From NCBI RefSeq assembly GCF_001613935.1, contig NZ_LQCI01000052.1, forward strand, positions 271,651-335,650: 64,000 nucleotides of DNA, written 5' to 3'. Under the pieces are notes generated by a model. It was not told the origin of the DNA. It did not search any database and saw only the letters and a list, made by a program, of their open reading frames with translations. Source of the DNA: Amycolatopsis regifaucium. Lineage in GTDB: Bacteria > Actinomycetota > Actinomycetes > Mycobacteriales > Pseudonocardiaceae. The translations under genes were made by a program, and so were the position numbers. This document shows positions 23,710 through 44,357 of the stretch, piece after piece. Position 1 is the first letter of the stretch. Every line of letters begins with the position of its first letter.

Positions 23710-23789
23710 GCTGTCCTCCACGCGGTTTTGGGCGTCTTCCACCGCCGCGCCCTGGGTGAGGGCGCGGGTTCGTCGAACGGGATTCGGTG

Positions 23790-27924: not shown

Positions 27925-27960
27925 GTTGACCGGAAGCTTCGCGCGGGGAGAACAATCAAC
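27925..27960 (-). promoter_or_regulatory. Cluster motif, copy B (upstream of operon B)
   Basis: Read on the minus strand: GTTGATTGTTCT (27960-27949), a 13-base spacer and TTCCGGTCAAC (27935-27925). The outer GTTGA and TCAAC are inverted. The element ends 57 bases before the carbamoyltransferase ATG. A near-identical element stands 56 bases before operon A at 44413-44449, so this is a candidate operator or activator site shared by the two operons. Confidence 0.7.
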
Positions 27961-29422
27961 CTTCCGACGAGCTGCCCGGCAGGGTGCGCACGGCCTCGTG
28001 TCGCAGCGACTCGAACGCGTTCTTCCGCGCCCGGCGGCCCACCATCGGGACCGCGGCGGCGAGCGGGTTCGGTTCCCGTTGCCGCTCGGCGGCGAACGCG
28101 CTGACCAACCGGGAGACCGCGTAGCGGCCGGCCACAGTGGCGCGCTGGAGAAGTCCGGCGTCCACCACGGATTCGAGGAGTTCGTCCGCGGTCTCGATCA
28201 TGATGCCCATCGCCGCGGCGACCCCGATCGACGTCGCCCAGCCCGCCCCGCTCTGCCCGAAGTGATGGATGGCCTCCCGCCCGGCGGGCGAAAGATGTTC
28301 GTAGGCCGAAGTGAACCGGTCCCGGACGTTGACGTCACCGACACAGAGACTGTCCATGAGCCGTTCGCGATCCGCGAGCCTGCCCGCCGTGTACGCGATC
28401 GCCCATTCCGGACGCGCGGCGATCTTGCGGCCGACGATGTTGATCGCCAAGGGCAGATCGCCGCACAGGTCGGCGATCGCGTCGGTCGCGTCGTGTTCGG
28501 CGTGGACCCGGCCCACCCCGGCGATCCGCCCGATCAACGCCAGCGATTCTTCGCGGGTGAACGTATCCAGCTCGATCCGGTTCGTGTCCTCCAGCCCGAG
28601 CAGCCGGGCGCGGCTGGTCACCACGACCTGGCTGTGCGTGGCCTGGCCCAGCAACGGCCGCACCTGACCTTCGTCACCGACCCCCGCGAGCAACACGAAC
28701 AACCTGCGTTCGGCGAGCAGGGACCGGTACAGGCCGACGCGCTGCATCGGGTCGTCGGGCACGAGATGCGCCGGCACCCCGAGCGCGCGCAGGAAGCCGC
28801 GCACGATCCCGTTGGCCGACCGGCCGCCGGTGCCACTGTTGCTCAGATCGGCGTAAAGCCGCCCGTCCGGGAAGTCGGCGGCGACCTCTTCGGCCAGCCG
28901 CAGGGCGAAGGCCGTTTTACCGACCCCGATCGGACCACTGACGACCAGCGGCGCCTTGACCGGACCGGTCGCCCCGATCATCCGGGTGGCCTTGGCCAAA
29001 TCCCTTTCCCTGCCGACGAAAGTCCTCGATCCCATCGGCAGCTGGGCCGGACGGGCCAAGTGGATGACGCCGGATGCCGACGCGTGCGCGCCATCCGCCG
29101 GAATCTCGGCCGGCGGTGGTGCGGGCGCGCGCTCCTCCCGCGCTTCGACACCGCCTCCCGTTTGGCCTGCGACGCTCCGCCAACGCCGTTCCCACGCCGC
29201 GCGGTCGCCCCCGCACGCGGAGACGAACGCCAGTGTCACGGCGAGGGTGGGCAGCCGGTGGCCGCTCGCCGCGCTGGACAGCACGGAAGGCGCGAACAGC
29301 GCCGTCCTCGCGAGTTCCCGGTAGCTCGGGTTTCCCGCCCGGTTCCGTAACACCCGCAGATCATGAGCGAATGCGGCGATCGGACCAGTGGAGCCGTCCA
29401 ACGGTCGCTCGGGTCTGCCCAT
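27956..29422 (-). CDS. HTH + NB-ARC transcriptional regulator
   Basis: A 488-residue protein. The first 80 residues form an actinomycete-type XRE-like helix-turn-helix (LRVLRNRAGNPSYRELARTA, LSSAASGHRLPT). A linker follows, then an NB-ARC ATPase with P-loop GPIGVGKTA near residue 167 and a helical C-terminal part. It resembles AfsR-like regulators without the SARP domain. ATG 29422 is chosen for its GGGGAGGAG site. It sits between the operons, and its end overlaps motif B, so it is the best candidate for the pathway-specific regulator. Confidence 0.82.
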   Translation of the reverse strand: MGRPERPLDGSTGPIAAFAHDLRVLRNRAGNPSYRELARTALFAPSVLSSAASGHRLPTLAVTLAFVSACGGDRAAWERRWRSVAGQTGGGVEAREERAPAPPPAEIPADGAHASASGVIHLARPAQLPMGSRTFVGRERDLAKATRMIGATGPVKAPLVVSGPIGVGKTAFALRLAEEVAADFPDGRLYADLSNSGTGGRSANGIVRGFLRALGVPAHLVPDDPMQRVGLYRSLLAERRLFVLLAGVGDEGQVRPLLGQATHSQVVVTSRARLLGLEDTNRIELDTFTREESLALIGRIAGVGRVHAEHDATDAIADLCGDLPLAINIVGRKIAARPEWAIAYTAGRLADRERLMDSLCVGDVNVRDRFTSAYEHLSPAGREAIHHFGQSGAGWATSIGVAAAMGIMIETADELLESVVDAGLLQRATVAGRYAVSRLVSAFAAERQREPNPLAAAVPMVGRRARKNAFESLRHEAVRTLPGSSSEG

Positions 29423-29475
29423 GCCATCTCCTCCCCTGGATGGGGTAACGCGATCGCGCTGCGTAACCGACATCC

Positions 29476-31041: not shown

Positions 31042-31371
31042 CTACTCGGCGACCTCTTCGATCGCCGAGATCCCCCGTGACCCGTGAGTGCCGTACCGCT
31101 CCCACACCTCGTTGAGCCGGATCCGCCCGTCCGGCAGGAACTCCGGGGTGTTCGTGCTGTGTCCCGAAATCACCTGCCCGCCGGTCAGCACCATGGTGTA
31201 GGCCAGCTCGATCGTCCCGTCCTCGCCGCACTTCCCGGTCAGCGACCCGAGCCGCACGCCGCCGCCGGACAGTTCGGCCCACACCAGGTCGTCCTTCTGC
31301 CGGTACCGGGTCACCGGCGCGTCCGGGTCGGCGCTGACCTTCCGGAACCGTTTCCCGTCGTAGTTGATCAT
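31042..31371 (-). CDS. Small conserved protein, often labelled N-acetylglutamate synthase-like
   Basis: A 109-residue protein starting MINYDGKRFRKV with later VWAELSGGGVRLGSLTG and LPDGRIRLNEVWER. I recognise this as a small beta-rich family that databases sometimes call N-acetylglutamate synthase; it has no acetyltransferase motif, so the label is doubtful. The ATG overlaps the FMN protein's stop, so it is the last gene of operon A. Confidence 0.65.
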   Translation of the reverse strand: MINYDGKRFRKVSADPDAPVTRYRQKDDLVWAELSGGGVRLGSLTGKCGEDGTIELAYTMVLTGGQVISGHSTNTPEFLPDGRIRLNEVWERYGTHGSRGISAIEEVAE

Positions 31372-32621
31372 GCGTCCTGCTCCTTCGGTCCGGGAGCACC
31401 CGGAAACCAGAGATCGTCCGAGGTGAGATCGGTGAGGTCGTACTTCCCGAGGGCGCTGGCGAGCAGCCGCAGTTCGAGTTCGAGGCACCGCACCAGCCGC
31501 ACGAGCCCTTCGGTCGCGTCCTCGTCGACGGCGAGCAGCGCCGCCCGGCCGAGGCCGACCGCGGAAGCGCCCATCGCCAGGCATTTCAGCGCACGGGCCC
31601 CTTCCCAGATCCGGCCGGACACCAGCAGCGACGCGTCGTGCTTGCCGACCCGGCGCAGGCATTCCACCAGCGGCAGGCCCACCTGGTCGAGGAACACCGA
31701 CGGCGCCCAGCCGGTGCCGCCCTCGGCACCGTCCACGGTGACCGCGTCCGCTCCCGCCGCCCACGCGACCTGTGCCGCCTCACCGACGTCCCGGCCTGGA
31801 TGCAGTTTCACCCAGGCCCGCGCCCGCGGGTAGTTGTTGCGCATCAGGTGGATCTGCTGGCGCAGGATCTCCCCGGTGAACGTGCCGGGACTGCTCGAGC
31901 GCAGCACCATCGCGGTGTCCGTGCCGAACGCTTCGTCCACTGTGTACTGTTCGGCGACCTCGCCCGCGGCCGTGCGCGAGAGCACGGTCATCCCGCCGAG
32001 GCCCGGTTTGGCCCCCTGGCCCACCTTCAGTTCGAACGCCAGACGCCCGCTCTCCAGCAGTTTCGTCGCGGACGGGTCGCTGTAGACGAGATTCCAGACC
32101 TCCGCGTCGGCGTCCTCGGTGCTCTGCTGCACCACCACACCACCCAGCCCGTCCGGCACCGCGCCGGCGTACGCGCGGATCCGCCCGAGCAGCCCGTCTT
32201 CCGCGCTTTCGCCCATCCGCCCGTAGCCGTGCATGGGCACGACGTTCTCGCCGATCACCATCGGCATCCCGAGTCTGCCCGCCTGCTCGCTCGCGGCGAT
32301 CCCGAGTCCGCTGCCCGCCACCTGCGTTGACCCGAACGCGCACAGGAAGACCGGCGACGGCGCCGTGAAGCCGCCGAGGACCGTCGTCAGCCCGACATCG
32401 CCGTAGACCGGTTCCCGTGCGAGGTCGAACATCTTCTCCAGGCGCCGCGGGACGAACACCGGCGGCACGATCCGCGCGCGGTCGAGTTCGTCGGTGCCCG
32501 AATCGACGTCCGCGCCGAACAACGTGCGCCCGTATCCCCCGACATCGGGGAAGATCGCCGCGCTGCCTTCCCGCGCCCGCGCGCGGATCGCGTCTTCCGG
32601 AAGCTGCCGTGCGGTGATCAC
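31368..32621 (-). CDS. Glutamate synthase-like FMN-binding protein
   Basis: A 417-residue protein with the TIM-barrel core of glutamate synthase: FELKVGQGAKPGLGGM, VTVDGAEGGTGWAPSVF and LLVSGRIWEGARALKCLAMGA. These bind FMN and are conserved in GltB and archaeal glutamate synthase; the glutamine amidotransferase domain is missing. It may reductively aminate an imino intermediate. The GTG start overlaps the AsnRS-like stop, and the gene overlaps the small gene downstream. Confidence 0.8.
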   Translation of the reverse strand: MITARQLPEDAIRARAREGSAAIFPDVGGYGRTLFGADVDSGTDELDRARIVPPVFVPRRLEKMFDLAREPVYGDVGLTTVLGGFTAPSPVFLCAFGSTQVAGSGLGIAASEQAGRLGMPMVIGENVVPMHGYGRMGESAEDGLLGRIRAYAGAVPDGLGGVVVQQSTEDADAEVWNLVYSDPSATKLLESGRLAFELKVGQGAKPGLGGMTVLSRTAAGEVAEQYTVDEAFGTDTAMVLRSSSPGTFTGEILRQQIHLMRNNYPRARAWVKLHPGRDVGEAAQVAWAAGADAVTVDGAEGGTGWAPSVFLDQVGLPLVECLRRVGKHDASLLVSGRIWEGARALKCLAMGASAVGLGRAALLAVDEDATEGLVRLVRCLELELRLLASALGKYDLTDLTSDDLWFPGAPGPKEQDA

Positions 32622-33613
32622 GGCGCCGCGATCCCCGGCAGCTTCGGGTACGCGTTGGCCTGCCAGACCGCGTCCAGCCCGGCGAGGTACCGCGTCACCC
32701 GCTCCAGTCCCATGCCGAAGCCGGCGCTCGGGGGGAGTCCCTCGCGCGCGAGGTCGAGGTACCAGCGGTACTTCGCCGGGTTCTCCCCTGTCTCCCGCAT
32801 CCGCTCGATGAGCCGCCGGTACTCGTGCGTGCGCTCACCGCCACTGCACAGTTCGCCGTACCCGTCCGCGGCGATGAGGTCGAAGTTCCGCAGCACGCCC
32901 GGTTCGGTGCTCGACTCGCCGTCGGTGAACCCGCGGGACCCCTTGGGGTAGTCGACGATGAAGAACGGCCGGTTCGTCTGCTCGGAGATGATCCGCTCGC
33001 CCTGCCAGTCGATCTCCGCGTCGGCGCTCTGCCCGTGCAGCAGCCCCCGCAGCCGCGACACCGCCTCGCGGTGCGTCATCCGCTCGAAGTCCTCCTCCAG
33101 CAGCGGCGTGAACGCGTCCTGGTCCCGGCCGAGCGCGGCGAGGTCCATTTTGGACTCCCGCAGTGTGTAGGCGACCACGTGCCGGAGCAGTCCCTGCGCG
33201 AGATCGAGGACGTCCTCCCGGCTCGCCCGCGCGACCTCGACGTCGATCTGGGTGAACTCGACCAGATGCCGTCCGGTGGTCGAGGTCTCCAGCGGCTCCA
33301 GCCGCACGTTCGGAGCGACGTAGAAGATCTTGTCGAAGGCCAGCAGCGACGCCTGTTTGTACAGGATGACGCTGGTCATCATCTTGTACTTGTGCCCGTA
33401 GTAGTCGACGTCGACCTGTTTGGCGCCGCGGCAACCCGGGTCGGTCACTGGCCCGATCAACGGCGGCTGCAGTTCCACGAAGCCGTTCATGCCGAGATAC
33501 TCGCGGGTGCCCGCGGTGATGCTGTTCTGGATGCGCAACGCCGCCTGTGTCACCGGCGACGTGAGATGCTCGCGGGTACCCGGCGGCAATGCCGCGTCCG
33601 CTGTTCCGGTCAT
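32618..33613 (-). CDS. Asparaginyl-tRNA synthetase-like / archaeal-type asparagine synthetase-like ligase
   Basis: A 331-residue class II aminoacyl-tRNA synthetase catalytic core. Motif 2 is in the TTGRHLVEFTQIDVEVA region and motif 3 is GFGMGLERVTRYLAGLD. There is no N-terminal anticodon-binding domain. Archaeal asparagine synthetase related to AsnRS has the same truncation. In this operon it probably adenylates an aspartate-like carboxylate, perhaps methylaspartate from the adjacent glutamate mutase, and joins it to ammonia or an amine. It is not a housekeeping tRNA synthetase by context or length. Confidence 0.8.
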   Translation of the reverse strand: MTGTADAALPPGTREHLTSPVTQAALRIQNSITAGTREYLGMNGFVELQPPLIGPVTDPGCRGAKQVDVDYYGHKYKMMTSVILYKQASLLAFDKIFYVAPNVRLEPLETSTTGRHLVEFTQIDVEVARASREDVLDLAQGLLRHVVAYTLRESKMDLAALGRDQDAFTPLLEEDFERMTHREAVSRLRGLLHGQSADAEIDWQGERIISEQTNRPFFIVDYPKGSRGFTDGESSTEPGVLRNFDLIAADGYGELCSGGERTHEYRRLIERMRETGENPAKYRWYLDLAREGLPPSAGFGMGLERVTRYLAGLDAVWQANAYPKLPGIAAP

Positions 33614-34917
33614 GTCCTACTCCCCTGAATTAGTTGAACGGTGTCGATTCCGGGCATCCCGTAGCGCTCGTCGAACGACCGCTCGACGTACCGGAGCGCG
33701 TCCAGCAGGTCGCTGGAGGTCATTCGTCGCTCCGACGGCAGGTCGACGAGATCGCCCAGTGGCATCGCGCCGATCCGCTGCCATTCCAGGCGCCCGCCCG
33801 CGTCCAGCCGTCCACGCGCCCGGCCGGCGTTGTCCGGGTGCAGGCAGAACGGGACGTCCAGCTGTCCCCGCGCGAACGCGGTGACCAGCGCCCGTCCGAG
33901 GTCGCCGTCGAGCGAAAGGACGTTGTCCACCAGCGCTTTCGCCTGCGCGTGGATCCCGGTGTCACCGAGATGACCGATCCGGGAGACGCCCCGCGCGGCG
34001 TCGGCGGCGTGTTCGAGGGCGGTCACGTTCTCCGCCACGGTCGGCAGCCGGTGCGCTTCGGCGGTGGTCTTCACGATCAGCCTGCTCGCGCCGGTGCGGG
34101 CGGCCAGCCGCGCGGACTCCGCGATCAGCGCCAGCGCGCCGCCGGGAGTCCTCGGGTAGACGCCCATGTAGCCGTAGACCACCACGTGCGTCCGCGCGTG
34201 CGGTACGTATTCCCTGATCAGGGCGTGCAGCGCGGCGATCGCCTCCTCGTCCTGCCCGGCGTGGGTCTGCTGCGCGTAGCTGAAGGAAAGGCAGCGCACG
34301 CCGTGCCGCCAGAAGAACATCCCCTCCAGCACACTCAGCGCGACCAGCAGCGCGGGCGGGCACAGCTGCCCCATCATGCAGCCGCCGAAGGTCTCCAGAT
34401 GCGGCTCCAGTTCCGGGCTCCTGGCCTCGGCCAGGGTTTCGCAACAGCGCCGCCAGTTGTCGACGGCCGCCGAGAGCGGCATCCGGCTGTAGGGCAGGCA
34501 GTACGACACCGGCCCGCCCTCGGTCGCGTGCAGCCCGAAGTCGAGCAGTGTCCGCACGATCCGGCGGGGATCCGCCGAACCGTGCCGGATCTGCACCGGG
34601 AAATCCTCGGACAGCACCCCGTCGAGCAACGCCGCCGTGGTGGCGGGCTCGTGGTCGGCGAGCGGGTAGCCGTTGAGGTCGGCACCGGCGGCCAGCGCCG
34701 CCCGTGCCGCCTCGCTGTCGCCGACCCGGGTGTAGCTGTCGATCGTGATGGTGCCGACGGTCGCGGCCCGCGCCGCCCTGGTCGCCAGCAGTCCCCTGGT
34801 CATCCGTCCCGGATCCGCGAAACCCATCCGGGGCTGGACGACCAGGTCTCCCCTGGCGTGGTGGCGTTCGACCACCGCGCCGAACGAAAGTCCCCGTCGC
34901 GGGGCGAGCACGCTCAT
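33610..34917 (-). CDS. glmE: Glutamate mutase epsilon subunit (methylaspartate mutase E)
   Basis: A 435-residue TIM-barrel protein. GTITIDSYTRVGD near the N-terminus, ETFGGCMMGQLCPPALLVA and the SFSYAQQTHAGQDEEA region match the catalytic subunit of coenzyme B12-dependent glutamate mutase. The complex interconverts L-glutamate and (2S,3S)-3-methylaspartate. The ATG overlaps the stop of the B12-binding subunit gene. In a biosynthetic cluster it most likely supplies 3-methylaspartate, as in friulimicin-type pathways. Confidence 0.88.
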   Translation of the reverse strand: MSVLAPRRGLSFGAVVERHHARGDLVVQPRMGFADPGRMTRGLLATRAARAATVGTITIDSYTRVGDSEAARAALAAGADLNGYPLADHEPATTAALLDGVLSEDFPVQIRHGSADPRRIVRTLLDFGLHATEGGPVSYCLPYSRMPLSAAVDNWRRCCETLAEARSPELEPHLETFGGCMMGQLCPPALLVALSVLEGMFFWRHGVRCLSFSYAQQTHAGQDEEAIAALHALIREYVPHARTHVVVYGYMGVYPRTPGGALALIAESARLAARTGASRLIVKTTAEAHRLPTVAENVTALEHAADAARGVSRIGHLGDTGIHAQAKALVDNVLSLDGDLGRALVTAFARGQLDVPFCLHPDNAGRARGRLDAGGRLEWQRIGAMPLGDLVDLPSERRMTSSDLLDALRYVERSFDERYGMPGIDTVQLIQGSRT

Positions 34918-35378
34918 CCGGCACCCAGCGGGACACCGGGGGCGCGCACGGACAGCGTCCGCAGGAACGTCCGGAACGGGCTCAGCCCGCCGGAGTCCTC
35001 GAACACCGCGTCGAAGCCTGCCTCCAGCAGCCGGGCGGCGTTGCTCCCGCCGGTGACGTCGAGCTTCCCGCCGATCACGACCGGCGTCGTGACCAGCGCC
35101 GGCTCCGCGCGGAAGGCGTCCATCAGCCGGACGCCGTCTTGGCAGCCGTGTCCGTTCAGACTGCTGATCACCACCAGGTCCGGCCGCCGGGTGACGCATT
35201 CGCGCACGATCGTCGCGTCCGGGACGCAGGCGCCGAGATTGGTCACCCGGCACCCCAGTTCCTCCAGCAGCAGCTCCAAATACACCAGGTTCCAGGTGTG
35301 CGCGTCGGACGAGAGCCCGGTGACGATCACGTCGAGACCGGCGTCCGGAAGGGCGGGCTGGACGGTTTCGATGCTCAT
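34914..35378 (-). CDS. glmS: Glutamate mutase cobalamin-binding subunit (methylaspartate mutase S)
   Basis: A 154-residue flavodoxin-fold B12-binding protein. The DxHxxG-type motif appears as DAHTWN, with the axial His present and Asn where Gly is usual; VVISSLNGHGCQDG is the second B12-contact loop. The gene is between an ATP-grasp gene and glmE with four-base overlaps on both sides, so the subunits are made together. Confidence 0.85.
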   Translation of the reverse strand: MSIETVQPALPDAGLDVIVTGLSSDAHTWNLVYLELLLEELGCRVTNLGACVPDATIVRECVTRRPDLVVISSLNGHGCQDGVRLMDAFRAEPALVTTPVVIGGKLDVTGGSNAARLLEAGFDAVFEDSGGLSPFRTFLRTLSVRAPGVPLGAG

Positions 35379-36655
35379 GGCGCGGCGTTCTCCCTCTCCT
35401 CGCCGTCCGGCCGCACGTCGATCTCGATCAGCGCGACCGCTTCTTCGGCCAGGCGCGACGCCTCCGCCGGACTGGCCGCGGTCACCATCAGATCGCCGAC
35501 GCGGTCCCACGAACTGCGCAGCCCGTCGAACCGGTCACCGGCCGAAACGCCGACGTCGCACAGGAACACGCCCTCGGCCTGTGCCGCCTTCTCGACACCG
35601 CGCACGTCCTCGATGAAGCCGGGCTCGATGGACACGAACCGCACCGCGGCACCGCGTTCGGCCTTGCGCGGCAACGCGTCCACAACCGGTTCACCCTTCA
35701 TCACCGAGAAGTAGGCGCGATTCAGCTCCACCGGGTAGGCGCGCTGGATCAGCTCGATGATGCCGTCGCCCGCGAACCGGCCGGCGCATTCGACCAGATA
35801 CGGCACCCCGTTCGAGACGATCCATTCACAGTGGACGATGCCGGTGCCGAAGCCGGTCGCCTCGGTGAGCCGCCGGGTTTCCTCGGTCAGCAGCGCGGTC
35901 AGTTCGTCCGGGATGTCGGCGGGGACGATGTGCGCGAGTTCCACCGGGCGCGACCCGGGGAACAGCCGTTTGCCGGTGACGTTGGCGAACAACGGTTCGC
36001 CGTCCCGCAGCAGCATTTCGACGCTGTACTCGTCGCCGTCGACGAAGCTCTCGGCCAGCATCTTCAGTTCCATCGCGCGGTCCGGGACGAAGACGCCCTC
36101 GTCCTGCACGGCACAGTCGGCCCAAGCCTGCTCGACCTCGGCCGGGTCGGTGATCACCTGGGTGCCCACCGACGCCTGCCGGTTCGCGGGCTTCAGCACG
36201 ATCTTTCCCGGATGCCGCGCCATGAACTCGCGGACCTGCGCCGGGGTTCCGACCTGGGCCGAAGGCGGGTTCGCGACCCCCGCCGCCCGGCTGACCAGGC
36301 GCAGCATCCCCTTGTCCCGCAGGATCTGCGCCGCGCCGAAGCCCGCGCCCGGCAGGCCGTACCGTTCCGCGAGCCGGGCCGCGAACGGGGTCGCGTACTC
36401 GGTCAGCGGGACCACCGCGGCCGGATCGAGGTCGTCGTGGACGTGGTAGAACTCGTCCGCCTTGCCGGGGAGGTGGAACTCCCACTCGATCAGGTCCCGC
36501 ACCAGGGCCGAACCCGCCACCGTCTCCCGCGCGCCGCGTTTGCGGACCACGTCGGGCTCCTCGACGAAGATGACCGTTCCGTCGGGCTGGAAGTCCTTGA
36601 TGGACGAACCCAGCGCGGCGGCCACGAAGCCGACCAGCAGCACCGGGCGCGTCAT
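35375..36655 (-). CDS. ATP-grasp ligase (second of the cluster)
   Basis: A 426-residue ATP-grasp protein: HPGKIVLKPANRQASVGT (ATP-binding), LAESFVDGDEYSVEML, and HCEWIVSNGVPYLVECAGRF with the metal-binding residues. It is of the carboxylate-amine ligase type. Overlaps by four bases with both the substrate-binding-protein gene and glmS. Its neighbours suggest it may couple methylaspartate to another amino acid. Confidence 0.86.
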   Translation of the reverse strand: MTRPVLLVGFVAAALGSSIKDFQPDGTVIFVEEPDVVRKRGARETVAGSALVRDLIEWEFHLPGKADEFYHVHDDLDPAAVVPLTEYATPFAARLAERYGLPGAGFGAAQILRDKGMLRLVSRAAGVANPPSAQVGTPAQVREFMARHPGKIVLKPANRQASVGTQVITDPAEVEQAWADCAVQDEGVFVPDRAMELKMLAESFVDGDEYSVEMLLRDGEPLFANVTGKRLFPGSRPVELAHIVPADIPDELTALLTEETRRLTEATGFGTGIVHCEWIVSNGVPYLVECAGRFAGDGIIELIQRAYPVELNRAYFSVMKGEPVVDALPRKAERGAAVRFVSIEPGFIEDVRGVEKAAQAEGVFLCDVGVSAGDRFDGLRSSWDRVGDLMVTAASPAEASRLAEEAVALIEIDVRPDGEERENAAP

Positions 36656-38406
36656 GACTCGTCCTCCTCCACGTAGTACCAGTTCTCGGGGTTGATCAGG
36701 CCGTACGGGTTGAGCGGGGTGAACCCGCGCAGGTTCCCGGCGACTTCGAACAGGCGCCGGGGGAACGTCGGCATGAAGATCACCGGGGCCTGGTCGGCGA
36801 TGTACTCCTGGTACTCGTACAGCGCTTCGAGGTCGTCGGTGGTGACCGTCTTCGCGATCAGCTCGTCGGCCCTGGCGTCGCGGTAGTTGCTGAAGTTGCA
36901 GGCGGCCCCGCTCTGGAAGAGGTTCTCGCCGGTCGGGTAGTTGTAGACCCAGCCTCCACCCCAGCAGGACAGCTCCCACAGCCGCTTCTCGCCCGGCCCG
37001 TCCTCCGCCACCAGGACCGAACCCATCACCTCTTCCAGGCGGATCTCGATCCCGGCCTTGGCCGCGTCGTCGCGGAACTGCGTCATGAGCCGGGCCAGCG
37101 AAGGCCGCCCTTCCCAGTAACGCAAGGAGAAACTCAGCTCGGTTCCGGCAGGGATGCCCTCGCCCGCCGCGCCGGGCCCGGTTCCGGGCCGCACGCACAC
37201 GGCGGGGGAAGCCTCGGTGTCCCAGCCGTTTTCGGCCAGCAGCGTACGTGCCCGTTCCAGGTCGAACGGCCAGGACCCGCCGCGTTCGGTGATCTTCGGT
37301 GAGACCAGGTCGCTCTTGGGCAGGACCGGGATCGGCCCGGTCTGGCTCCAGCCGTAACCCTGATAGACCTCGCGGGCGCCGTACTCCTGGTCGAAACAGC
37401 TCTGGAGTGCCTGCCGCACGTACGGTTGCCGGAGCAGCTGGCCGGCGACGGTGGGGTTGCCGAAGTTCACCGCCATGAAGTTGATGTTGAACAGGATCTG
37501 CGGTTCCAGCTGGAATCCGGCGCCGAGCGGGTTCGGCCCGCCCCGCGTCGGGTCGCCGTCCGGTTGGACGCCCTTACCCGGCGGCAGGAAACCGACCTGG
37601 ACGTCGCCCGACCGCAGCAGTTCGTACTGCTGCTCGTCCGACGTCGTCGAGACCTGGCGCAACTCGTCCAGGTGCGGCGGGTTGGGGCCGCTGTAGTGCT
37701 CGTTCGGGACGAAGGTGATGACCCCTTCTTTCGTGTAGCTCTTCAGCCGCCACGGTCCGTTGACGACACTCCACACCGGACTGTCCGCCCACCGGGTGCG
37801 GTGGGTGTTGTCCTCGGCGACGGGATCGCCGTTCTCCGCCATCAGGAACTCGTACACCGCTTCCGCTTGGCCGATGTCGTGGGTCGCGTCGGCGGGTCCG
37901 GCCGCGGTGCGGTCCCACGCCTTCGGCATCGGCGTGATCATGGTGAGCTGGTTCAGCAGCACCCAGTTCTTCGAGTACGCCTTGTCGAAGGTGAAGCTCA
38001 CCTTGTCGTCGACGACCTTCTCGAAGGACACCAGGTTGTCCGGGAAGTAGCCTTCGCTGTAGGCGCCGAACTTCGGCCCCTTCGTCTTCAGCATGTTCAT
38101 CCAGAAGACGACGTTGTCCGCGCAGACCGTCTCGCCGTTGGACCATTTCCACGGTTTGATCCGGACCGTGCAGGTGCGGCCGGTCTCGTCCCACACCGGC
38201 TCTTCGCCCACGCTGAGGTCGTAGTCGATCGCGGGTTCGCCGTCGCGGCCGAGCCAGTAGAGGGGCCGGTACATCAGCATCTGGAACTCGTAGAGGTTCC
38301 GGATGCCGAAACGCTCTCCGGGGGTGAACGGGAAGATCACCGCGGGCGGGAACCCGGGAAGGCAGGCCCAGGTCGCCACGCCGCCCTTGATCGGCTTGTC
38401 CGTCAT
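36652..38406 (-). CDS. SBP_bac_5-type peptide-binding protein lacking an export signal
   Basis: A 584-residue family 5 extracellular solute-binding protein (PWKWSNGETVCADNVVFWMN, GPWRLKSYTKEG, ANYNP-like VYNYPTGENLF). It starts MTDKPIKGGVATWA: the GG-hydrophobic strand that normally follows the lipobox Cys begins at residue 8, so there is no signal peptide or lipobox. It should be cytoplasmic. No ABC permease or ATPase gene is near. It may bind, shield or carry a pathway intermediate, or have become an enzyme; that is inference. Confidence 0.85.
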   Translation of the reverse strand: MTDKPIKGGVATWACLPGFPPAVIFPFTPGERFGIRNLYEFQMLMYRPLYWLGRDGEPAIDYDLSVGEEPVWDETGRTCTVRIKPWKWSNGETVCADNVVFWMNMLKTKGPKFGAYSEGYFPDNLVSFEKVVDDKVSFTFDKAYSKNWVLLNQLTMITPMPKAWDRTAAGPADATHDIGQAEAVYEFLMAENGDPVAEDNTHRTRWADSPVWSVVNGPWRLKSYTKEGVITFVPNEHYSGPNPPHLDELRQVSTTSDEQQYELLRSGDVQVGFLPPGKGVQPDGDPTRGGPNPLGAGFQLEPQILFNINFMAVNFGNPTVAGQLLRQPYVRQALQSCFDQEYGAREVYQGYGWSQTGPIPVLPKSDLVSPKITERGGSWPFDLERARTLLAENGWDTEASPAVCVRPGTGPGAAGEGIPAGTELSFSLRYWEGRPSLARLMTQFRDDAAKAGIEIRLEEVMGSVLVAEDGPGEKRLWELSCWGGGWVYNYPTGENLFQSGAACNFSNYRDARADELIAKTVTTDDLEALYEYQEYIADQAPVIFMPTFPRRLFEVAGNLRGFTPLNPYGLINPENWYYVEEDES

Positions 38407-38436: not shown

Positions 38437-39696
38437 TCAGGCGGCGGTCGCCTCGAGAACTTCGGCGGGCTGCTTGTTGTCCTGCGCCGACAGCGGTTTC
38501 GCCAGACTGAAGTAGGTGCCGATCACGATCGCGCCCTGCAGGATCGCCAGCCCCCAGAAGGCGTGGGGCACGGTGGTCGCGTCCGCCAATGTCGACAAGC
38601 CGACCGTCGCGCCGACGCCGAGCCCGAGGCCGACGGCCTGGGTGCCGCCGAAGATCCGGCCGACCCGCTCCTCCGGGCTCGCCCGCATCAGCAGGGTGCG
38701 GGCGGCGATGCGGCCCTGCGCGAAACAGAACCCGGCGAACGGGATCGCCACCATCAACGCGATGTAGTGCAACGGCTGGATCGCCAGGCAGATCAGGTTC
38801 CCGAGCGTGCCGAGCACGGCGAGGTGGATGCCCTTGAACCGTTTGCTGACCTTGCCGTACAGGGCGGCGCCGGCGATGAACCCGGCCCCGGCCAGCGCGT
38901 CGACCACGCCGATCATCCAGGCGCCCTGGTTGAACGTCTGCAGGATCAGCGTCGTCAGGATGACGTTGGCGACCATCAGGCCGATGTTCCCGTTGGCGTA
39001 CAACAGCGCGAGCCGCTTGATCGGCTGGCGCACCGGTACCTCGACCGGCGCCGACGGGTCCACGGTCACCGTCTCGACGATGACCGGCGCCTTGACCGGC
39101 TTCCGGCCGATCGCGTAGACGAGGACGGCCGAGAGCATGAAGGTCAGCGAGTTGAAGATGAACAGCGGTGTGGCGCCGAACCAGATCACCAGGAAACCCG
39201 CCAGCGACGAGGCGAGCAGCATGCCGGCGTTGCTCGCCATCTCGAAGTGGGAGTTGAACTTCCCGAGCCGTTCGTCGGCGACCCGTTCCTTGATCAAGCC
39301 GTTGCTGGCGGGCATGAACAGCGCCGCGGTGCAGGCGAGCATGAAGTTCGCTATGTAGGAGCCCAGGTTCGCCGGGCCGCCGATCCACAGCCACACCGGC
39401 AGCGCGAACGCGGTCATCGCGCTGACCAGGTCCGCCGCCACGCAGAGCATCCGCCGGTCGACCCGGTCGACCAGTTTGCCGAACAGCAGCGCGAGCGCGA
39501 CCTGCGGGACCGACACCGCGATGAACAGCCAGCCGACGGCCAGTGTGGTCTGCTCGGCGTGGAAGACCAGGATCGCGGCCGCGGTGATCTGGAAGGCGTT
39601 GCCCGCCGTGGTGATGAAGCCGGCCGGGACGAGCAGCCGTTCGGCGATCCGGGACCGCCGGACCGCGTCGGCGGAGAGGGTGCTGTCGAGTGACAT
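38437..39696 (-). CDS. MFS transporter
   Basis: A 419-residue major facilitator with about 12 hydrophobic spans, an LVDRVDRR loop after span 2 (the MFS motif A position) and a soluble middle loop rich in Pro/Val. It lies 30 bases downstream of the SBP gene's upstream neighbour and within operon A. Probable exporter of the product and so a self-protection gene. Confidence 0.85.
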   Translation of the reverse strand: MSLDSTLSADAVRRSRIAERLLVPAGFITTAGNAFQITAAAILVFHAEQTTLAVGWLFIAVSVPQVALALLFGKLVDRVDRRMLCVAADLVSAMTAFALPVWLWIGGPANLGSYIANFMLACTAALFMPASNGLIKERVADERLGKFNSHFEMASNAGMLLASSLAGFLVIWFGATPLFIFNSLTFMLSAVLVYAIGRKPVKAPVIVETVTVDPSAPVEVPVRQPIKRLALLYANGNIGLMVANVILTTLILQTFNQGAWMIGVVDALAGAGFIAGAALYGKVSKRFKGIHLAVLGTLGNLICLAIQPLHYIALMVAIPFAGFCFAQGRIAARTLLMRASPEERVGRIFGGTQAVGLGLGVGATVGLSTLADATTVPHAFWGLAILQGAIVIGTYFSLAKPLSAQDNKQPAEVLEATAA

Positions 39697-39702
39697 GGGG
39701 GC

Positions 39703-41319
39703 TCAGACCTCGCTCGTCGGGGGGAATTCCAGTGGTGGCACGGCGAACGCCGTGGTGTGCGTGACGTCGTAGGCGTCCGCGGTGATCCGGAGGTCGAATC
39801 CGCCCGCGCTCGCGGCACGCGCGGAGAGGTCGATGAGGATCGGTGAGGCACAGCCGATCAGCGCGCGCAGTTCCAGGAAGAGGTCACCCAGCCTGCCGCG
39901 GAGCACCTCCTGGTCGAGGTTCCCCGCGAGGGTGCGTTCCGCGGCCGCCCGCAGCCGTTCGACGTGCTGCACCACCAGATCCGCCGCCCGGCTGAGGCTG
40001 AAGTCCTCGAGTTCGTAGTTCAGGACGAACCGGGACACCATCGCCGCCGCGCGTTCCGTGGCCTCGGTGGACACCGGAAGCCCGCCTTCGCCGCCGACCT
40101 CGGCGGTGAGCTTGGCCAGGGTCTCCGCGAGTTCGTTCCAGGGCGCGACGAGCCGTTCCCCGGCGATCTTCTCCAGCGCGGCGCGGCTGAAGTTGGTCCT
40201 GGCGAACTCGGGGGCGGTGAGGTTGAGATAGAACCGCGCGAGGTCGCGCGGCAGTTCGGCCGCCAGTTCACGGGCCCAGACCACATGTCCCTTGCTGGTG
40301 GAGAACTTCTCGTTCTCGAGTTCGTAGAACTCGTTGACCAGCAACGTGTCCGGCAGGACGTAGCGGCCGTCGTGGGCGATCAGCTCGGCGACGTGGACGA
40401 CGCCCCAGGTGAACAGCGGGTCGAACCCCATGAACACCACGACCCGCGCGTCGTTCTCCGCGAGCCACGCGTCGTCGTCGGCGACGACCGGCTTTCCGTT
40501 GCGTCGCAAGGCGTATTCGGTGCAGTACATCGACGCGGGCATGCCCTCGACCCAGGCGTTGAGCGTCTGCCCCGGCGTTTCCGCGAACGGCGCGGGCAGC
40601 CCCCAGCTCACCGGATAGGTGATGGCGAAGTCCGGCAACGGTCCGGCCAGCAGTTCGCGCATCAGCCCGAGCACGTGCGGCCGCCAGGCGGGACCGCGTT
40701 CCTCGTAGTAGGCGAGCAACTGTTCGCGGTACTCCGAGACGGGGAAGACCAGGATCTCCGTCTCGCGGTAGGTCACCTCGTCTGCCGGGTCGAGCACCGA
40801 ATACGGCTCGATGAGCGCGTCGAAGTCGATCGGGTGCCCGCATCCCTCGCAGAATCCGCCGCGGCTGTCGGCGAGACAGGTGGGGCAGCCACCGCCGACG
40901 AAACCTTCGACCAGGAATTCGCCCTCGCGCTCGCTGTAGGGCAGCCGCACCTTGCGCAGGCGAAGCTTTCCGTTGTCGTACAAGCGGTTGACGTAGTCGT
41001 GCACAAGGACCTTGTAGCCGTCGTCGGTCGGCGAGAAGCCGTCGACCTCGACGCCCATCGCCTTGAAGGTGCGCTGGATGTTCTCGGTCGACTGCTTCAC
41101 CAGCTCGGGCGGGGTCACCCCGACCCGGGCGGCGCTGGTGACGAGGTAGGTCTGGCTGTCGTCGGTGCACGAGGCGAACACGCCCTCGCGACCCGCCGCG
41201 CGCAGATACCGCCGGTGCACGTCGGCGCCGAGATACGGGCCGGCGATATGCCCGATGTGCAGGTCCCCGTTGGACGTCGGCGGGCCGCCGATGATCACGA
41301 CCGGTCTCGTGTCGGCCAT
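39703..41319 (-). CDS. Methionyl-tRNA synthetase-like protein, probable N-N bond (hydrazine) synthetase component
   Basis: A 538-residue class I synthetase homologue. GDLHIGHIAG carries the HIGH signature at residues 21-24, a zinc-knuckle CPTC...CEGC lies near 145-160, and KFSTSKG near 340 replaces KMSKS. Standing between a cupin and a lysine N-hydroxylase, it matches the MetRS domain of Spb40/PyrN-type hydrazine synthetases, which activate an amino acid and join it to N6-hydroxylysine, forming an N-N bond after rearrangement on the cupin metal. In characterised cases the two domains are fused; here they are adjacent genes. GTG 41325 is an alternative start overlapping the cupin stop. Confidence 0.85.
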   Translation of the reverse strand: MADTRPVVIIGGPPTSNGDLHIGHIAGPYLGADVHRRYLRAAGREGVFASCTDDSQTYLVTSAARVGVTPPELVKQSTENIQRTFKAMGVEVDGFSPTDDGYKVLVHDYVNRLYDNGKLRLRKVRLPYSEREGEFLVEGFVGGGCPTCLADSRGGFCEGCGHPIDFDALIEPYSVLDPADEVTYRETEILVFPVSEYREQLLAYYEERGPAWRPHVLGLMRELLAGPLPDFAITYPVSWGLPAPFAETPGQTLNAWVEGMPASMYCTEYALRRNGKPVVADDDAWLAENDARVVVFMGFDPLFTWGVVHVAELIAHDGRYVLPDTLLVNEFYELENEKFSTSKGHVVWARELAAELPRDLARFYLNLTAPEFARTNFSRAALEKIAGERLVAPWNELAETLAKLTAEVGGEGGLPVSTEATERAAAMVSRFVLNYELEDFSLSRAADLVVQHVERLRAAAERTLAGNLDQEVLRGRLGDLFLELRALIGCASPILIDLSARAASAGGFDLRITADAYDVTHTTAFAVPPLEFPPTSEV

Positions 41320-41321
41320 GC

Positions 41322-41705
41322 TCACACCCCCGCCCGCTCGGACGGCTGTGCCGCGTGCCGGGCGGCGAACTTCGCCGTCATGTCGGCGTCCCACCAGATC
41401 GCGTACATCTCGAAGTCCTCCGCACCGTCGTTGAGGATGCGGTGCTCGGTGCCGGGCGCGTGGAACTCGATGTCGCCCGGCCGGAACGCGCGGCGTTCGC
41501 CCCCGGTCTCGACGACCGCCTCGCCGCTGACGGCGATGAAGATCTCGTACTCGTGGTGAGAGTGCGCACCCGTCGCGCCGTGGGCGGGCACCGTGACCCA
41601 GGCACCTTCGAACGGCGCGTTCAGCGCCGCCCACGGCAGGAGCCGCTGTCCGTAGGCGCCGTTCTCGAAGACCATCTTTTCCCGCTCCAGCGGACGGATC
41701 TCCAT
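41322..41705 (-). CDS. Stand-alone cupin, probable partner of the MetRS-like protein
   Basis: A 127-residue single-domain cupin. GATGAHSHHEYEIFIAVSGE contains the metal-binding His residues and Glu, and PGDIEFHAPGTEHRI the last His. In the fused hydrazine synthetases a zinc cupin rearranges the O-acyl hydroxylamine ester into the N-N-linked product. The gene ends one base before the GTG/ATG of the MetRS-like gene and follows the N-hydroxylase, so a two-subunit hydrazine synthetase is likely. Confidence 0.83.
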   Translation of the reverse strand: MEIRPLEREKMVFENGAYGQRLLPWAALNAPFEGAWVTVPAHGATGAHSHHEYEIFIAVSGEAVVETGGERRAFRPGDIEFHAPGTEHRILNDGAEDFEMYAIWWDADMTAKFAARHAAQPSERAGV

Positions 41706-41728
41706 GACTGCTTCTTCCTTTCCGTGGC

Positions 41729-43042
41729 TCAGCGGGTGGCGACGATGGGCGCGGTGTCCGACGTCGGCTGCGGCGGCACCGACGGGGCCTCGCCGCGATG
41801 GGCGAGGATGTCCTGCAGGATGTCGTTGGCGCGCGGGGCGAGCACGCTCAGCAGCGAGTCCGCGATCCCGTGCGTCGCCTCGTTGACCCCCTGGAGGTAG
41901 ACGGCGGCGGTGGCGGGCTGGTCGATCTCCAGCCGGTAGTCGCGGGTCACCTTGATCTCCGAGAGACCGATCGATTTCGCGATCTCCTGGACCATCCTCG
42001 GCATCTCCGGCGAGAAGCCGGTGCCGAGCAGCACGAGATCCGTGCGCAGTTCCTGCGTCTCGCCGGTACGCCGGTCGGTCAGTTCCAGCACGACCTCGTC
42101 ACCCTCGTCACGGGCGTCGGTGATGTCGCTCATCGTGATCATCCGCAGCCGCGAACGCCCGGAAAGCCGGTCGAGGTACATCGAGCGGTAGAGCGCGTCC
42201 ATCGTGCCCGGCGCCAGCCCGGAGTAGTTCGTGTGGTGCATCTCGGCGAGCATCTGCTCGCGTGCCGCGGGCAGCGCGTCGAAGAACTTGTCGACCTGGG
42301 ACGGGAAGAACAGCTCGTTGTTGAACTTGCTGCTCTCGTAGTAGTTCAGGCCGATCGACCGCATCACCATCGTGGGCTTGCATTCGGGCAGGTCGTTCTG
42401 CACCGCGCCGAACAGTTCCGCCGCGCTCTGGCCGGCGCCGATCACCGCGACGCGGTAGGGCAGGTCCTTGCGCAGCTTGGCGATCCGCGGCAGGTACTGG
42501 GTGCTGTGGATGACGCGGTCCTGGTTCACCGTCCGGAGCTGGTCCGGGATCCGCGCGTCGCGGCCTGCCCCGACCACCAGGTACCGGCTGCGGATGACCT
42601 CGCCGTCGGCGATCCGGGTCTCCCAGCCGGTGAGCGTGCCGTCCGTCCACACGGGAGTGATCTCGCGGCATTCCCGGCCGCGCTGAAGATCGACCATCGA
42701 CAGCGAGTCGGCAGTCCACTTCAGATAGTCGGCCAGCTCGACCCGGTACGGGACGAAGCTGCCCATGTTCACGAACTCGTTGAGCCGGTTGGTGTCGTGC
42801 AGATAGTTGAGGAACGAGAACCGGCTGCGCGGATTGCGCAGGGTCACCAGGTCCTTGAGGAACGAGACCTGCGACAACGCCTCCGGCAGGAGCATGCCCC
42901 GCTGCCAGGAGACCTCCTCGTCGCGTTCGATCAGGACCGAATCGCGGGCCAGGCCGGGCGCGAGCTCCTCCAGTGCCACTGCGAGTGCCAGGTTGGACGG
43001 TCCTGCTCCGACTGCGAGAAGCTCGACATCACGGTTCGCCAT
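41729..43042 (-). CDS. Lysine/ornithine N-monooxygenase
   Basis: A 437-residue flavin-dependent N-hydroxylase. AVGAGPSNLALAVALEE (FAD), LTTLRNPRSRFSFLNYL-like region TLRNPRSRFSFLNYLH (substrate side), VIGAGQSAAELF (NADPH) and LLGTGFSPEMP are in the order of the SidA/IucD family. It hydroxylates the side-chain amine of lysine or ornithine. ATG 43042 is chosen because GGAG lies seven bases upstream; earlier GTG 43108 would overlap the ATP-grasp gene. The cupin/MetRS neighbours favour N6-hydroxylysine for hydrazine formation over a siderophore. Confidence 0.88.
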   Translation of the reverse strand: MANRDVELLAVGAGPSNLALAVALEELAPGLARDSVLIERDEEVSWQRGMLLPEALSQVSFLKDLVTLRNPRSRFSFLNYLHDTNRLNEFVNMGSFVPYRVELADYLKWTADSLSMVDLQRGRECREITPVWTDGTLTGWETRIADGEVIRSRYLVVGAGRDARIPDQLRTVNQDRVIHSTQYLPRIAKLRKDLPYRVAVIGAGQSAAELFGAVQNDLPECKPTMVMRSIGLNYYESSKFNNELFFPSQVDKFFDALPAAREQMLAEMHHTNYSGLAPGTMDALYRSMYLDRLSGRSRLRMITMSDITDARDEGDEVVLELTDRRTGETQELRTDLVLLGTGFSPEMPRMVQEIAKSIGLSEIKVTRDYRLEIDQPATAAVYLQGVNEATHGIADSLLSVLAPRANDILQDILAHRGEAPSVPPQPTSDTAPIVATR

Positions 43043-43100
43043 TGTTTGCTCCGCCATCGTTGAGAGTGCTTGGAAGGTGTTCTGCGGTGCGGTCACGCGG

Positions 43101-44357
43101 TCAGCCACCGGTGGCCACGGAGGGCAGCAGGGGGTACGCGGTCAGCCGGACCTGGGCCATGGCTTTGTCCAGCACCACCTCGCAATCGTCGGGATCTCGA
43201 CCGGCACAGATCACATACGCGTGGCGCGAAATGAACTCCGCCGGCGGCAGCCGCATCCGCGCGCCCGGTTCGACGAGCCCGCCGGAGGCGAGAATCCCGT
43301 TTCCCAGCAAGGGTTCCGGCACCGAAACCGATTCGACGACGCAGTCCTGCTTGGGGTAGCCGAACCGCACGCCGACCCACCGGTCCTCGGCCTCGTGCGG
43401 GATATGGGGCCGCATGCCGAGCGCGACGTCGACCGCGGCGGCGCCCGGGTCGATCCCGGTCGCGAACCGGGCCAGCAACGGGATCAGGTCCCCGCCGAGC
43501 CTGCCGTTGATCTCCACGATCACCGGCCCGCGTTCGGTGAGCTTGAGTTCGGTGTGGGTGACGCCGTACCGGAAATCGATCGCGCCGTGCGCTCGGGCCA
43601 GCGTCGAACGGAGTACGGGGTCGGCGAGCAGTTCGTCGGAGGAGCTGACCAGGTGGCCGAGTTCCTCGAAGTACGGATGCATGCCGACCGTCTTGTGCGC
43701 CAGGAACATCGGCGTGTACTCGCCGTCGACGACGGCGCCGTCCACGCTGATCTCCGGGCCGGTCAGATACTCCTCGACCAGCGCCCCGCCCTGGTAGGCG
43801 GGAGAGCCACCGAAGCTGGCCTCCTCCGCGGTGCGGAACGCCTTCCGCACCGCCTCGCCGTCTTCCGCGAGGCTGACGCCGATGCTGGCCCCTCCCCCGC
43901 GCGGCTTGACGACGACCGGATAGCCGATCCGCTCAGCCACGCGGACCGCCTGCTCTTCGTCGTGCACGAAACCGAAGTCCGGCTGCGCGACCCCGGCCGC
44001 GGTGAGCGTCCGGCGGCTGAGCCATTTGTCGCGGCAGCCCTCGATCGCGGAGATCCCCGCGCCCGGCACGCCGAGTTCGTCCGCGACGTGCGCCGCGGTC
44101 ACGATCAACGCCTCGTCCCACGAAACCACGCCGAATACCGGCGTGGTCGCGTTCAGCGCGCGGGCCGCGGCCAGTACGGCGTCACGGTCCTGCAGGTCCA
44201 GCACCGTGGCGCCGGTGATGTAGCGGTCCTGCCAGGTCGGTTCGTCCCCGTTGAACAGCCACAAGGGATGCCGGTGACCGGCCGACGCCAACAGGTACTC
44301 CCGGTACGGCCGCATCCCGCAGCCGATGACCAGGACAACACCCTCCGCTGAGCTCAT
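43101..44357 (-). CDS. ATP-grasp ligase (first of the cluster)
   Basis: A 418-residue ATP-grasp protein: GYPVVVKPRGGGASIGVSLA (ATP site), ALVEEYLTGPEISVDG and PVIVEINGRLGGDLIPLL (metal site). It resembles L-amino-acid ligases that form dipeptides through an acyl phosphate. First gene of operon A; the ATG follows GGGGAGAGGGA. The shared cluster motif ends 56 bases upstream. Confidence 0.86.
   Translation of the reverse strand: MSSAEGVVLVIGCGMRPYREYLLASAGHRHPLWLFNGDEPTWQDRYITGATVLDLQDRDAVLAAARALNATTPVFGVVSWDEALIVTAAHVADELGVPGAGISAIEGCRDKWLSRRTLTAAGVAQPDFGFVHDEEQAVRVAERIGYPVVVKPRGGGASIGVSLAEDGEAVRKAFRTAEEASFGGSPAYQGGALVEEYLTGPEISVDGAVVDGEYTPMFLAHKTVGMHPYFEELGHLVSSSDELLADPVLRSTLARAHGAIDFRYGVTHTELKLTERGPVIVEINGRLGGDLIPLLARFATGIDPGAAAVDVALGMRPHIPHEAEDRWVGVRFGYPKQDCVVESVSVPEPLLGNGILASGGLVEPGARMRLPPAEFISRHAYVICAGRDPDDCEVVLDKAMAQVRLTAYPLLPSVATGG

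What the first reader, a model, noticed from the sequence alone, without database searches (positions are those of the whole stretch)
39703..43042. Split hydrazine synthetase: separate cupin and MetRS-like genes next to a lysine N-hydroxylase
Seen: N-hydroxylase, 127-residue cupin and a 538-residue MetRS homologue with HIGH and KFSTSKG are consecutive. Known: in s56-p1, triacsin and pyrazomycin-type pathways an N6-hydroxylysine-forming enzyme works with one fused cupin-MetRS protein (Spb40, PyrN) to make an N-N bond. Here the two domains are separate genes in cupin-MetRS order, touching at the stop/start. A two-subunit hydrazine synthetase would be a useful variant and marks the cluster as making an N-N product. 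The amino acid activated (Gly, Glu or 3-methyl-Asp) is unknown.
Basis: partly seen in the sequence, partly recalled or inferred. Interest (0 to 1): 0.9.

Follow-up and report, generated by a model that had tools for sequence, protein, structure and literature searches.

The report
Split enzyme pair making nitrogen-nitrogen bonds
An Amycolatopsis-type genome carries a cupin gene and a methionyl-tRNA-synthetase-like gene, side by side, that very probably work as a two-protein enzyme joining two nitrogen atoms; such split pairs are already known, but here they sit in a gene cluster of unknown product that also carries an unusual glutamate-rearranging gene set.

Summary
In detail: N-hydroxylase, 127-aa cupin and 538-aa MetRS-like gene are consecutive on the minus strand, cupin stop and MetRS start 2 nt apart. 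The cupin keeps the four metal/catalytic positions of PyrN; the MetRS-like model matches the PyrN MetRS domain best (Z 39.4, next 32.8); a normal MetRS lies elsewhere in the genome. A functional split hydrazine synthetase is very likely. The split form is not new: predicted in 2010, shown in Rhodococcus jostii in 2021, and present in 78 of 80 related named loci examined here. Less ordinary is the cluster, in the same order in Amycolatopsis and Kibdelosporangium: a cassette of two glutamate-mutase-like subunits, an AsnA-like synthetase and a glutamate-synthase-like FMN protein, plus three ATP-grasp ligases, a sarcosine-oxidase-like enzyme and a carbamoyltransferase. My paper searches found no account of it. 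The MetRS pocket lacks the arginine of glutamate-using PyrN and looks less filled than in an azaserine-type (glycine) homologue, so a neutral amino acid is likely; that it is the cassette's product is an untested guess, and tests on pocket positions were not significant. Product unknown.

The parts
41729..43108 (-). FAD-dependent lysine/ornithine N-hydroxylase (start 43108 or 43042)
   Evidence: Pfam PF13434 2.9e-85; PDB best hits 3s5w L-ornithine 5-monooxygenase 4.1e-78, MbtG 1.1e-71
41322..41705 (-). stand-alone cupin, predicted N-N-forming zinc cupin; H48, H50, E54, H88
   Evidence: Pfam Cupin_2; spacing identical to PyrN H50/H52/E56/H90 and RHS1 D63/H65/E69/H103; matches RHS1 structure 5uqp at 1e-9
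39703..41319 (-). stand-alone MetRS-like amino-acid-activating subunit (538 aa)
43101..44357 (-). ATP-grasp ligase 1
   Evidence: Pfam PF13535 1.3e-16
38437..39696 (-). MFS transporter
   Evidence: Pfam MFS_1 3.4e-26
36652..38406 (-). family 5 (oligopeptide-type) solute-binding protein
   Evidence: Pfam SBP_bac_5 1.1e-39
35375..36655 (-). ATP-grasp ligase 2 with LAL_C2 domain
34914..35378 (-). B12-binding subunit, glutamate mutase S-like (below the NCBIfam cut-off)
   Evidence: Pfam B12-binding 5.5e-13; NCBIfam 43.7 bits against cut-off 110
33610..34917 (-). methylaspartate (glutamate) mutase E-like subunit (below the NCBIfam cut-off)
   Evidence: Pfam PF06368 1.8e-79; TIGR01503 154.4 bits, cut-off 390.1
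32618..33613 (-). AsnA-like class II synthetase, 331 aa, catalytic domain only
   Evidence: NCBIfam NF005052 426 bits, cut-off 368
31368..32621 (-). glutamate-synthase/FMN-dehydrogenase-like protein
   Evidence: Pfam Glu_synthase 7e-23, FMN_dh 3.5e-12
27956..29473 (-). HTH plus NB-ARC-like regulator
26300..27868 (-). carbamoyltransferase-like protein
   Evidence: Pfam Carbam_trans_C 5e-54
25040..26197 (-). sarcosine-oxidase-like FAD oxidoreductase, predicted C-N cleaving enzyme (Spb39/Tri27 role)
   Evidence: Pfam DAO 3.9e-22; sarcosine oxidase hits 1.2e-8; a homologue lies directly after the MetRS-like gene in 32 of 80 named loci
23790..25043 (-). ATP-grasp ligase 3
   Evidence: Pfam PF13535 4e-18
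22897..23742 (-). dimethylargininase/arginine dihydrolase-family enzyme
   Evidence: NCBIfam NF045659 451.6 bits, cut-off 300; PDB closest Sll1336 and Alr4995
21466..22887 (-). cation/proton antiporter, last gene of the block that I traced
   Evidence: Pfam Na_H_Exchanger; same position in five same-genus genomes and Kibdelosporangium

Best explanation
The pair is a two-subunit, tRNA-independent hydrazine synthetase. The flavin N-hydroxylase makes N6-hydroxylysine (or N5-hydroxyornithine). The MetRS-like subunit adenylates an amino acid with a neutral side chain and moves it onto the hydroxylamine oxygen as an unstable ester; the zinc cupin captures the ester and, through Glu54, rearranges it to the N-N bond. 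The sarcosine-oxidase-like enzyme at 25040-26197 then probably cuts one C-N bond to release a hydrazino acid, which the ATP-grasp ligases build into a small exported peptide together with an amino acid made by the mutase/AsnA-like/FMN cassette. Shown here: gene identity, motifs, predicted fold, conservation, synteny. Known for relatives from papers: chemistry of the two subunits and of the oxidase. Inferred: substrate choice, order of steps and product.
For: MetRS-like model (pLDDT 89.9): best structural match is the PyrN MetRS domain, Z 39.4, rmsd 2.5, 518 residues; next (Leishmania MetRS) 32.8. HIGH and KFSTS motifs kept. Cupin keeps H/H/E/H at PyrN spacing, as do 83 of 83 cupins extracted beside homologues. 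The genome has a separate MetRS at 1.4e-141, and the protein scores far below the methionine--tRNA ligase cut-offs (best 216.5 against 587). An N-hydroxylase homologue lies in 79 of 80 named loci. Chemistry of relatives: PMC8664883; oxidase role: PMC11705231 passages. An oxidase homologue lies directly after MetRS in 32 of 80 named loci, and an annotated FAD oxidoreductase follows it in the Pantoea and Deinococcus records.
Against: By sequence alone the MetRS-like protein is about as close to a real archaeal MetRS (171.6 bits) as to PyrN (174.8). No activity, metal or partner binding can be shown here. In the window the oxidase lies 13.5 kb away in a second gene group, not next to MetRS. Lysine against ornithine is undecided: the best PDB hit of the hydroxylase is an ornithine monooxygenase. 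The amino acid is unknown.
Confidence: 0.85

Rival explanations
1. About the substrate only (compatible with the best explanation): the MetRS-like subunit uses a common small amino acid (Ala, Ser or Gly), as other family members do, and the mutase/AsnA/FMN cassette feeds only the ATP-grasp ligases.
For: Homologues at 60% identity without the cassette in their loci (L072-L076) share much of the pocket. The minimal Pantoea and Deinococcus clusters show no cassette in the stretches seen. Two sister-clade genomes (L073, L091) carry the cassette on another contig, away from the MetRS-like gene, so it can serve something else. Differences of cassette clade I are not enriched at preset pocket positions (3 of 15 against its sister, p 0.34; 1 of 15 against the rest, p 0.33).
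Against: All 12 clade I rows have T, V or I at position 304 and Glu at 312, against 0 of 62 other rows and 0 of 10 clade II rows; nine of the 12 are close relatives, so these are few independent events.
Confidence: 0.55
2. The MetRS-like subunit activates Glu, as PyrN and the R. jostii pair do.
For: The PyrN MetRS domain is the closest solved structure, but it may be the only hydrazine synthetase MetRS domain solved.
Against: PyrN has Arg where this protein has Trp305 (E. coli His301), in both alignments made. None of the cluster proteins scanned matched a saccharopine dehydrogenase family, the marker used to find Glu-type clusters, though azaserine clusters carry such genes too.
Confidence: 0.05
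3. It is a duplicate methionyl-tRNA synthetase acting in translation.
For: Pfam tRNA-synt_1g match and intact adenylation motifs.
Against: Separate MetRS elsewhere; below the MetRS cut-offs listed; changed methionine pocket, e.g. His301 to Trp, Tyr15 to Thr; regular partnership with cupin and hydroxylase.
Confidence: 0.02

Closest known systems
Rhodococcus jostii RHA1 RHS1 cupin plus stand-alone MetRS-like protein (Zhao et al. 2021)
   Same: Two separate genes with an N-hydroxylase; cupin metal-ligand spacing (D/H/E/H there, H/H/E/H here).
   Different: Glu-using, found by way of a saccharopine-dehydrogenase gene; RHS1 is only distantly similar (1e-9).
PyrN (pyrazomycin)
   Same: MetRS fold (Z 39.4) and cupin residues.
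   Different: One fused polypeptide; Arg at the Trp305 position; Glu substrate.
Spb40, Tri28, AzsN (s56-p1, triacsin, azaserine)
   Same: N-hydroxylase, FAD oxidase and cupin/MetRS logic.
   Different: Fused, leading to hydrazinoacetic acid from glycine; AzsN has a carrier domain. The azaserine-type homologue L146 is 32% identical over the MetRS part.
MtRS paralog operons of Iyer et al. 2010
   Same: Stand-alone cupins, lysine monooxygenase, ATP-grasp, peptide-binding protein, transporter, dimethylargininase.
   Different: That paper's main text has no 'mutase' and no 'Amycolatopsis'; the mutase/AsnA/FMN cassette is additional.

Membership tests
cupin/MetRS-like hydrazine synthetase | MetRS-like protein with intact adenylation motifs, distinct from the genome's translational MetRS | tested here: met
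cupin/MetRS-like hydrazine synthetase | fold closer to a known hydrazine synthetase MetRS domain than to MetRS | tested here: met
   Z 39.4 against 32.8; sequence scores nearly tie
cupin/MetRS-like hydrazine synthetase | cupin with metal ligands and the invariant Glu | tested here: met
cupin/MetRS-like hydrazine synthetase | adjacent lysine/ornithine N-hydroxylase | tested here: met
cupin/MetRS-like hydrazine synthetase | zinc binding and tRNA-independent N-N bond formation | not testable with these tools
   needs purified proteins
fused Spb40/PyrN subtype | cupin and MetRS in one polypeptide | tested here: not met
Glu-specific (PyrN) subtype | Arg at the position of E. coli MetRS His301 | tested here: not met
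   Trp305; that this Arg binds Glu is my inference
translational methionyl-tRNA synthetase | NCBIfam methionine--tRNA ligase cut-offs | tested here: not met
   216.5 against 587 for the best model, the other five listed models also below

The most novel reading that the evidence does not exclude
In this cassette-bearing clade the MetRS-like subunit activates the cassette's own product, for example 3-methylasparagine made from glutamate by the mutase and the AsnA-like enzyme, a substrate not among the Gly, Ala, Ser, Glu and Tyr listed for the family (PMC11705231); or the AsnA-like enzyme couples the mutase product to the freed hydrazine as a hydrazide. Either would give a new class of branched hydrazino peptide. 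(Lowered from 0.2 to 0.15 after searches showed the complete cassette away from any hydrazine synthetase gene in two sister-clade genomes.)
Probability: 0.15. Interest if true: 0.65.

Novelty: new member of a known kind. Interest (0 to 1): 0.35.

Why it matters
The pair gives separately expressible subunits with a pocket unlike the glutamate- and glycine-type references compared here, useful for extending biocatalytic hydrazine synthesis. The surrounding cluster, kept across actinomycete genera, points to an uncharacterised N-N natural product that may contain a rearranged-glutamate building block. The claim that a split synthetase is itself a new variant does not hold, because split pairs are known.

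Tried and rejected
Rejected: 'the two-subunit form is new' (papers above). Rejected as unproven: that pocket changes track the mutase cassette. Clade I (12 rows) has unique residues, but Fisher tests on a pocket set recalled from the E. coli MetRS literature are not significant; clade II has the same cassette with a different pocket (Leu259, Phe305 in 10 of 10 rows), and the two clades are not sisters in the tree. Post hoc, 5 of the 10 clade-I-only positions fall at 295-312; I give this no weight. The 62 'other' rows include L097, which looks like clade II but whose 4.6-kb contig cannot show the cassette.

Corrected: the B12-subunit query used was translated out of frame, so its hits there are void; it was redone in frame. 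I first called the 281-aa protein an arginine dihydrolase from PDB hits (the function of those two proteins is recalled, with AgrE and its dihydrolase activity seen in passages of PMC8262935); the curated NCBIfam model says Mycobacterium-type dimethylargininase, so its reaction is left open. A plasmid search for the mutase gave 17 records; I looked at two, with malonyltransferase/AMP-ligase or type I polyketide synthase neighbours and no AsnA-like or FMN gene named.

Literature searches: (glutamate mutase, hydrazine, biosynthetic gene cluster) 0 papers; (three of Amycolatopsis, N-N bond, ATP-grasp, cupin) 2 papers, one a sulfonamide review seen only in the listing, the other PMC10445470 seen in passages; (two of methylaspartate mutase, ATP-grasp, biosynthetic gene cluster) 98 papers, 10 listed, none of the ten holding 'methylaspartate mutase'. 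The library lacks most subscription journals, including the phylogeny paper on pocket residues that PMC11705231 cites. No coordinates of the model were available to my scripts, so the pocket was read from alignments only.
Full report
Observation. On the minus strand the N-hydroxylase (43108 or 43042 to 41729), cupin (41705-41322) and MetRS-like gene (41319-39703) follow each other; the cupin stop and the MetRS ATG are two bases apart. They lie in a run of eleven closely packed minus-strand genes from 44357 to 31368: ATP-grasp, N-hydroxylase, cupin, MetRS-like, MFS, solute-binding protein, ATP-grasp, B12-binding subunit, mutase E, AsnA-like, FMN protein. A second minus-strand group, 27868-21466, holds a carbamoyltransferase, a sarcosine-oxidase-like FAD enzyme, a third ATP-grasp ligase, a dimethylargininase-family enzyme and an antiporter.

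Conservation. Of 297 genomes sampled from the window's family, its own included, 58 have a match to the MetRS-like protein at 1e-55 or better. Seven further genomes of the same genus match at 91-93%. For five of them (G194, G223, G085, G283, G278) I fetched both flanks and found the genes from ATP-grasp 1 to the antiporter in the same order; for G107 and G015 I fetched only the first group, and its eleven genes are there. Kibdelosporangium (G163) has the same order. Actinokineospora (G100) has the eleven genes in order with the antiporter, dimethylargininase, ATP-grasp 3 and oxidase genes on the other side; the carbamoyltransferase was not seen in the stretches fetched. Dactylosporangium (L071) has the same core without the first ATP-grasp gene in place. 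The closest named loci are from Amycolatopsis. In the three genomes compared, protein identity exceeds third-position identity for each of the 17 genes.

Split form. The thirty loci L010-L039 (the window's own included) all have the cupin just upstream and not fused; in 29 it is in another frame, in L021 in the same frame but behind a stop. A scan of named genomes gave 157 confirmed relatives, of which the best 80 were kept. Of these 80, 78 have a separate cupin just upstream, none is fused, and two have no cupin detected there: L130, where one lies about 10 kb away on the other strand, and L141, cut by the contig end. The 83 cupins extracted (78 named loci, four plasmid records, L059) all keep H-x-H-x3-E-x33-H. 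Only the distant azaserine-type plasmid homologue L146 scored as fused; L147 is annotated as one long protein, but my search did not detect its cupin.

Prior knowledge. PMC2922099 (passages) predicted these operons in 2010, stand-alone cupins included. PMC8664883 (parts 1-4 of 7) showed that the MetRS-like part makes an ester, that the zinc cupin rearranges it, that separated domains work in trans, and that a natural pair works in R. jostii. PMC11705231 (passages) lists further pairs, the substrates Gly, Ala, Ser, Glu and Tyr, and the role of the FAD enzymes Spb39 and Tri27. PMC10445470 (passages) gives the azaserine gene order that I used to recognise L146 as a glycine-type reference; that assignment is by gene content.

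Structure and pocket. The AlphaFold model of the MetRS-like protein has mean pLDDT 89.9. Among the Foldseek-ranked PDB chains re-aligned by VIA, the PyrN MetRS domain is first by a clear margin. E. coli MetRS pocket positions are recalled from the literature. At His301 this protein has Trp305, PyrN Arg, L146 His; at Phe300 this clade has Thr, Ile or Val, its sister clade Phe, L146 Tyr; at Ala256 Gly here, Met in L146; at Tyr260 Ser here, Phe in L146. PyrN's stretch opposite residues 250-263 aligns differently by phmmer and MAFFT and was not used. I infer a neutral pocket, more open than the glycine type. This does not identify the amino acid.

Cassette. Mutase E, AsnA-like and FMN genes occur together in 14 of the 80 named loci as first fetched, and the B12 subunit in the same ones. 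In six more (L096, L098, L099, L102, L114, L115) the locus ended too early; the same contigs, recognised by length, carry the complete set just beyond. That makes 20 of 80. In the tree the cassette loci form two well-supported clades: I (this one, 100/100) and II (100/100). Clade I is sister (99/93) to Streptomyces and Micromonospora loci without the cassette nearby, so linkage was gained or lost more than once. Against a strict tie: of the sister genomes, those of L073 and L091 carry the complete cassette on another contig, with no cupin or MetRS-like gene in the 15-16 kb fetched; those of L074 and L076 carry a mutase pair alone in the stretch fetched; those of L072 and L075 have no mutase match at 1e-60; L080 was not tested. 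The tree tool warned of long branches for the outgroup and L145. Both mutase proteins score well below the NCBIfam cut-offs, so even 3-methylaspartate as their product is an inference.

Verdict. Ordinary in its headline: a new member of a known, characterised enzyme family in its known split form. Mildly interesting in its cluster and pocket. Interest 0.35.

Noticed in passing
26300-27868: The carbamoyltransferase-like protein is the slowest-changing cluster protein (98.9% and 97.9% identical in two same-genus genomes; 87.9% in Kibdelosporangium, where the other 16 range from 67.7 to 79.7%); the family's N-terminal profile matches only a short stretch.
   Followed up: partly
34914-35378: The B12-binding subunit reads D-A-H-T-W-N where the DxHxxG motif (recalled) is expected; the final Gly is replaced.
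   Followed up: no
22897-23742: A second, 56% identical copy of this dimethylargininase-family enzyme lies elsewhere in the genome (G000:C34:763188-764003), so the cluster copy may be dedicated.
   Followed up: partly
L154 (7801 on) and L156 (4436-8018 region): The complete mutase S/E, AsnA-like and FMN cassette occurs without a nearby cupin or MetRS-like gene, so it is a module that may serve other pathways.
   Followed up: partly
L059 and L105 (clade II clusters): Both carry a cytochrome P450, a second N-hydroxylase-family gene and a 481-498 aa protein without a Pfam match just before the cupin.
   Followed up: partly
L143 10362-18413: A plasmid of a Pantoea ananatis onion isolate carries a minimal version: N-hydroxylase, cupin, MetRS-like, FAD oxidoreductase, MFS, ATP-grasp, solute-binding protein, GNAT; Deinococcus ficus plasmid L144 has a similar set.
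   Followed up: partly
L130 10001-11491: A Kutzneria MetRS-like gene without an upstream cupin; a cupin match lies about 10 kb away on the other strand.
   Followed up: no
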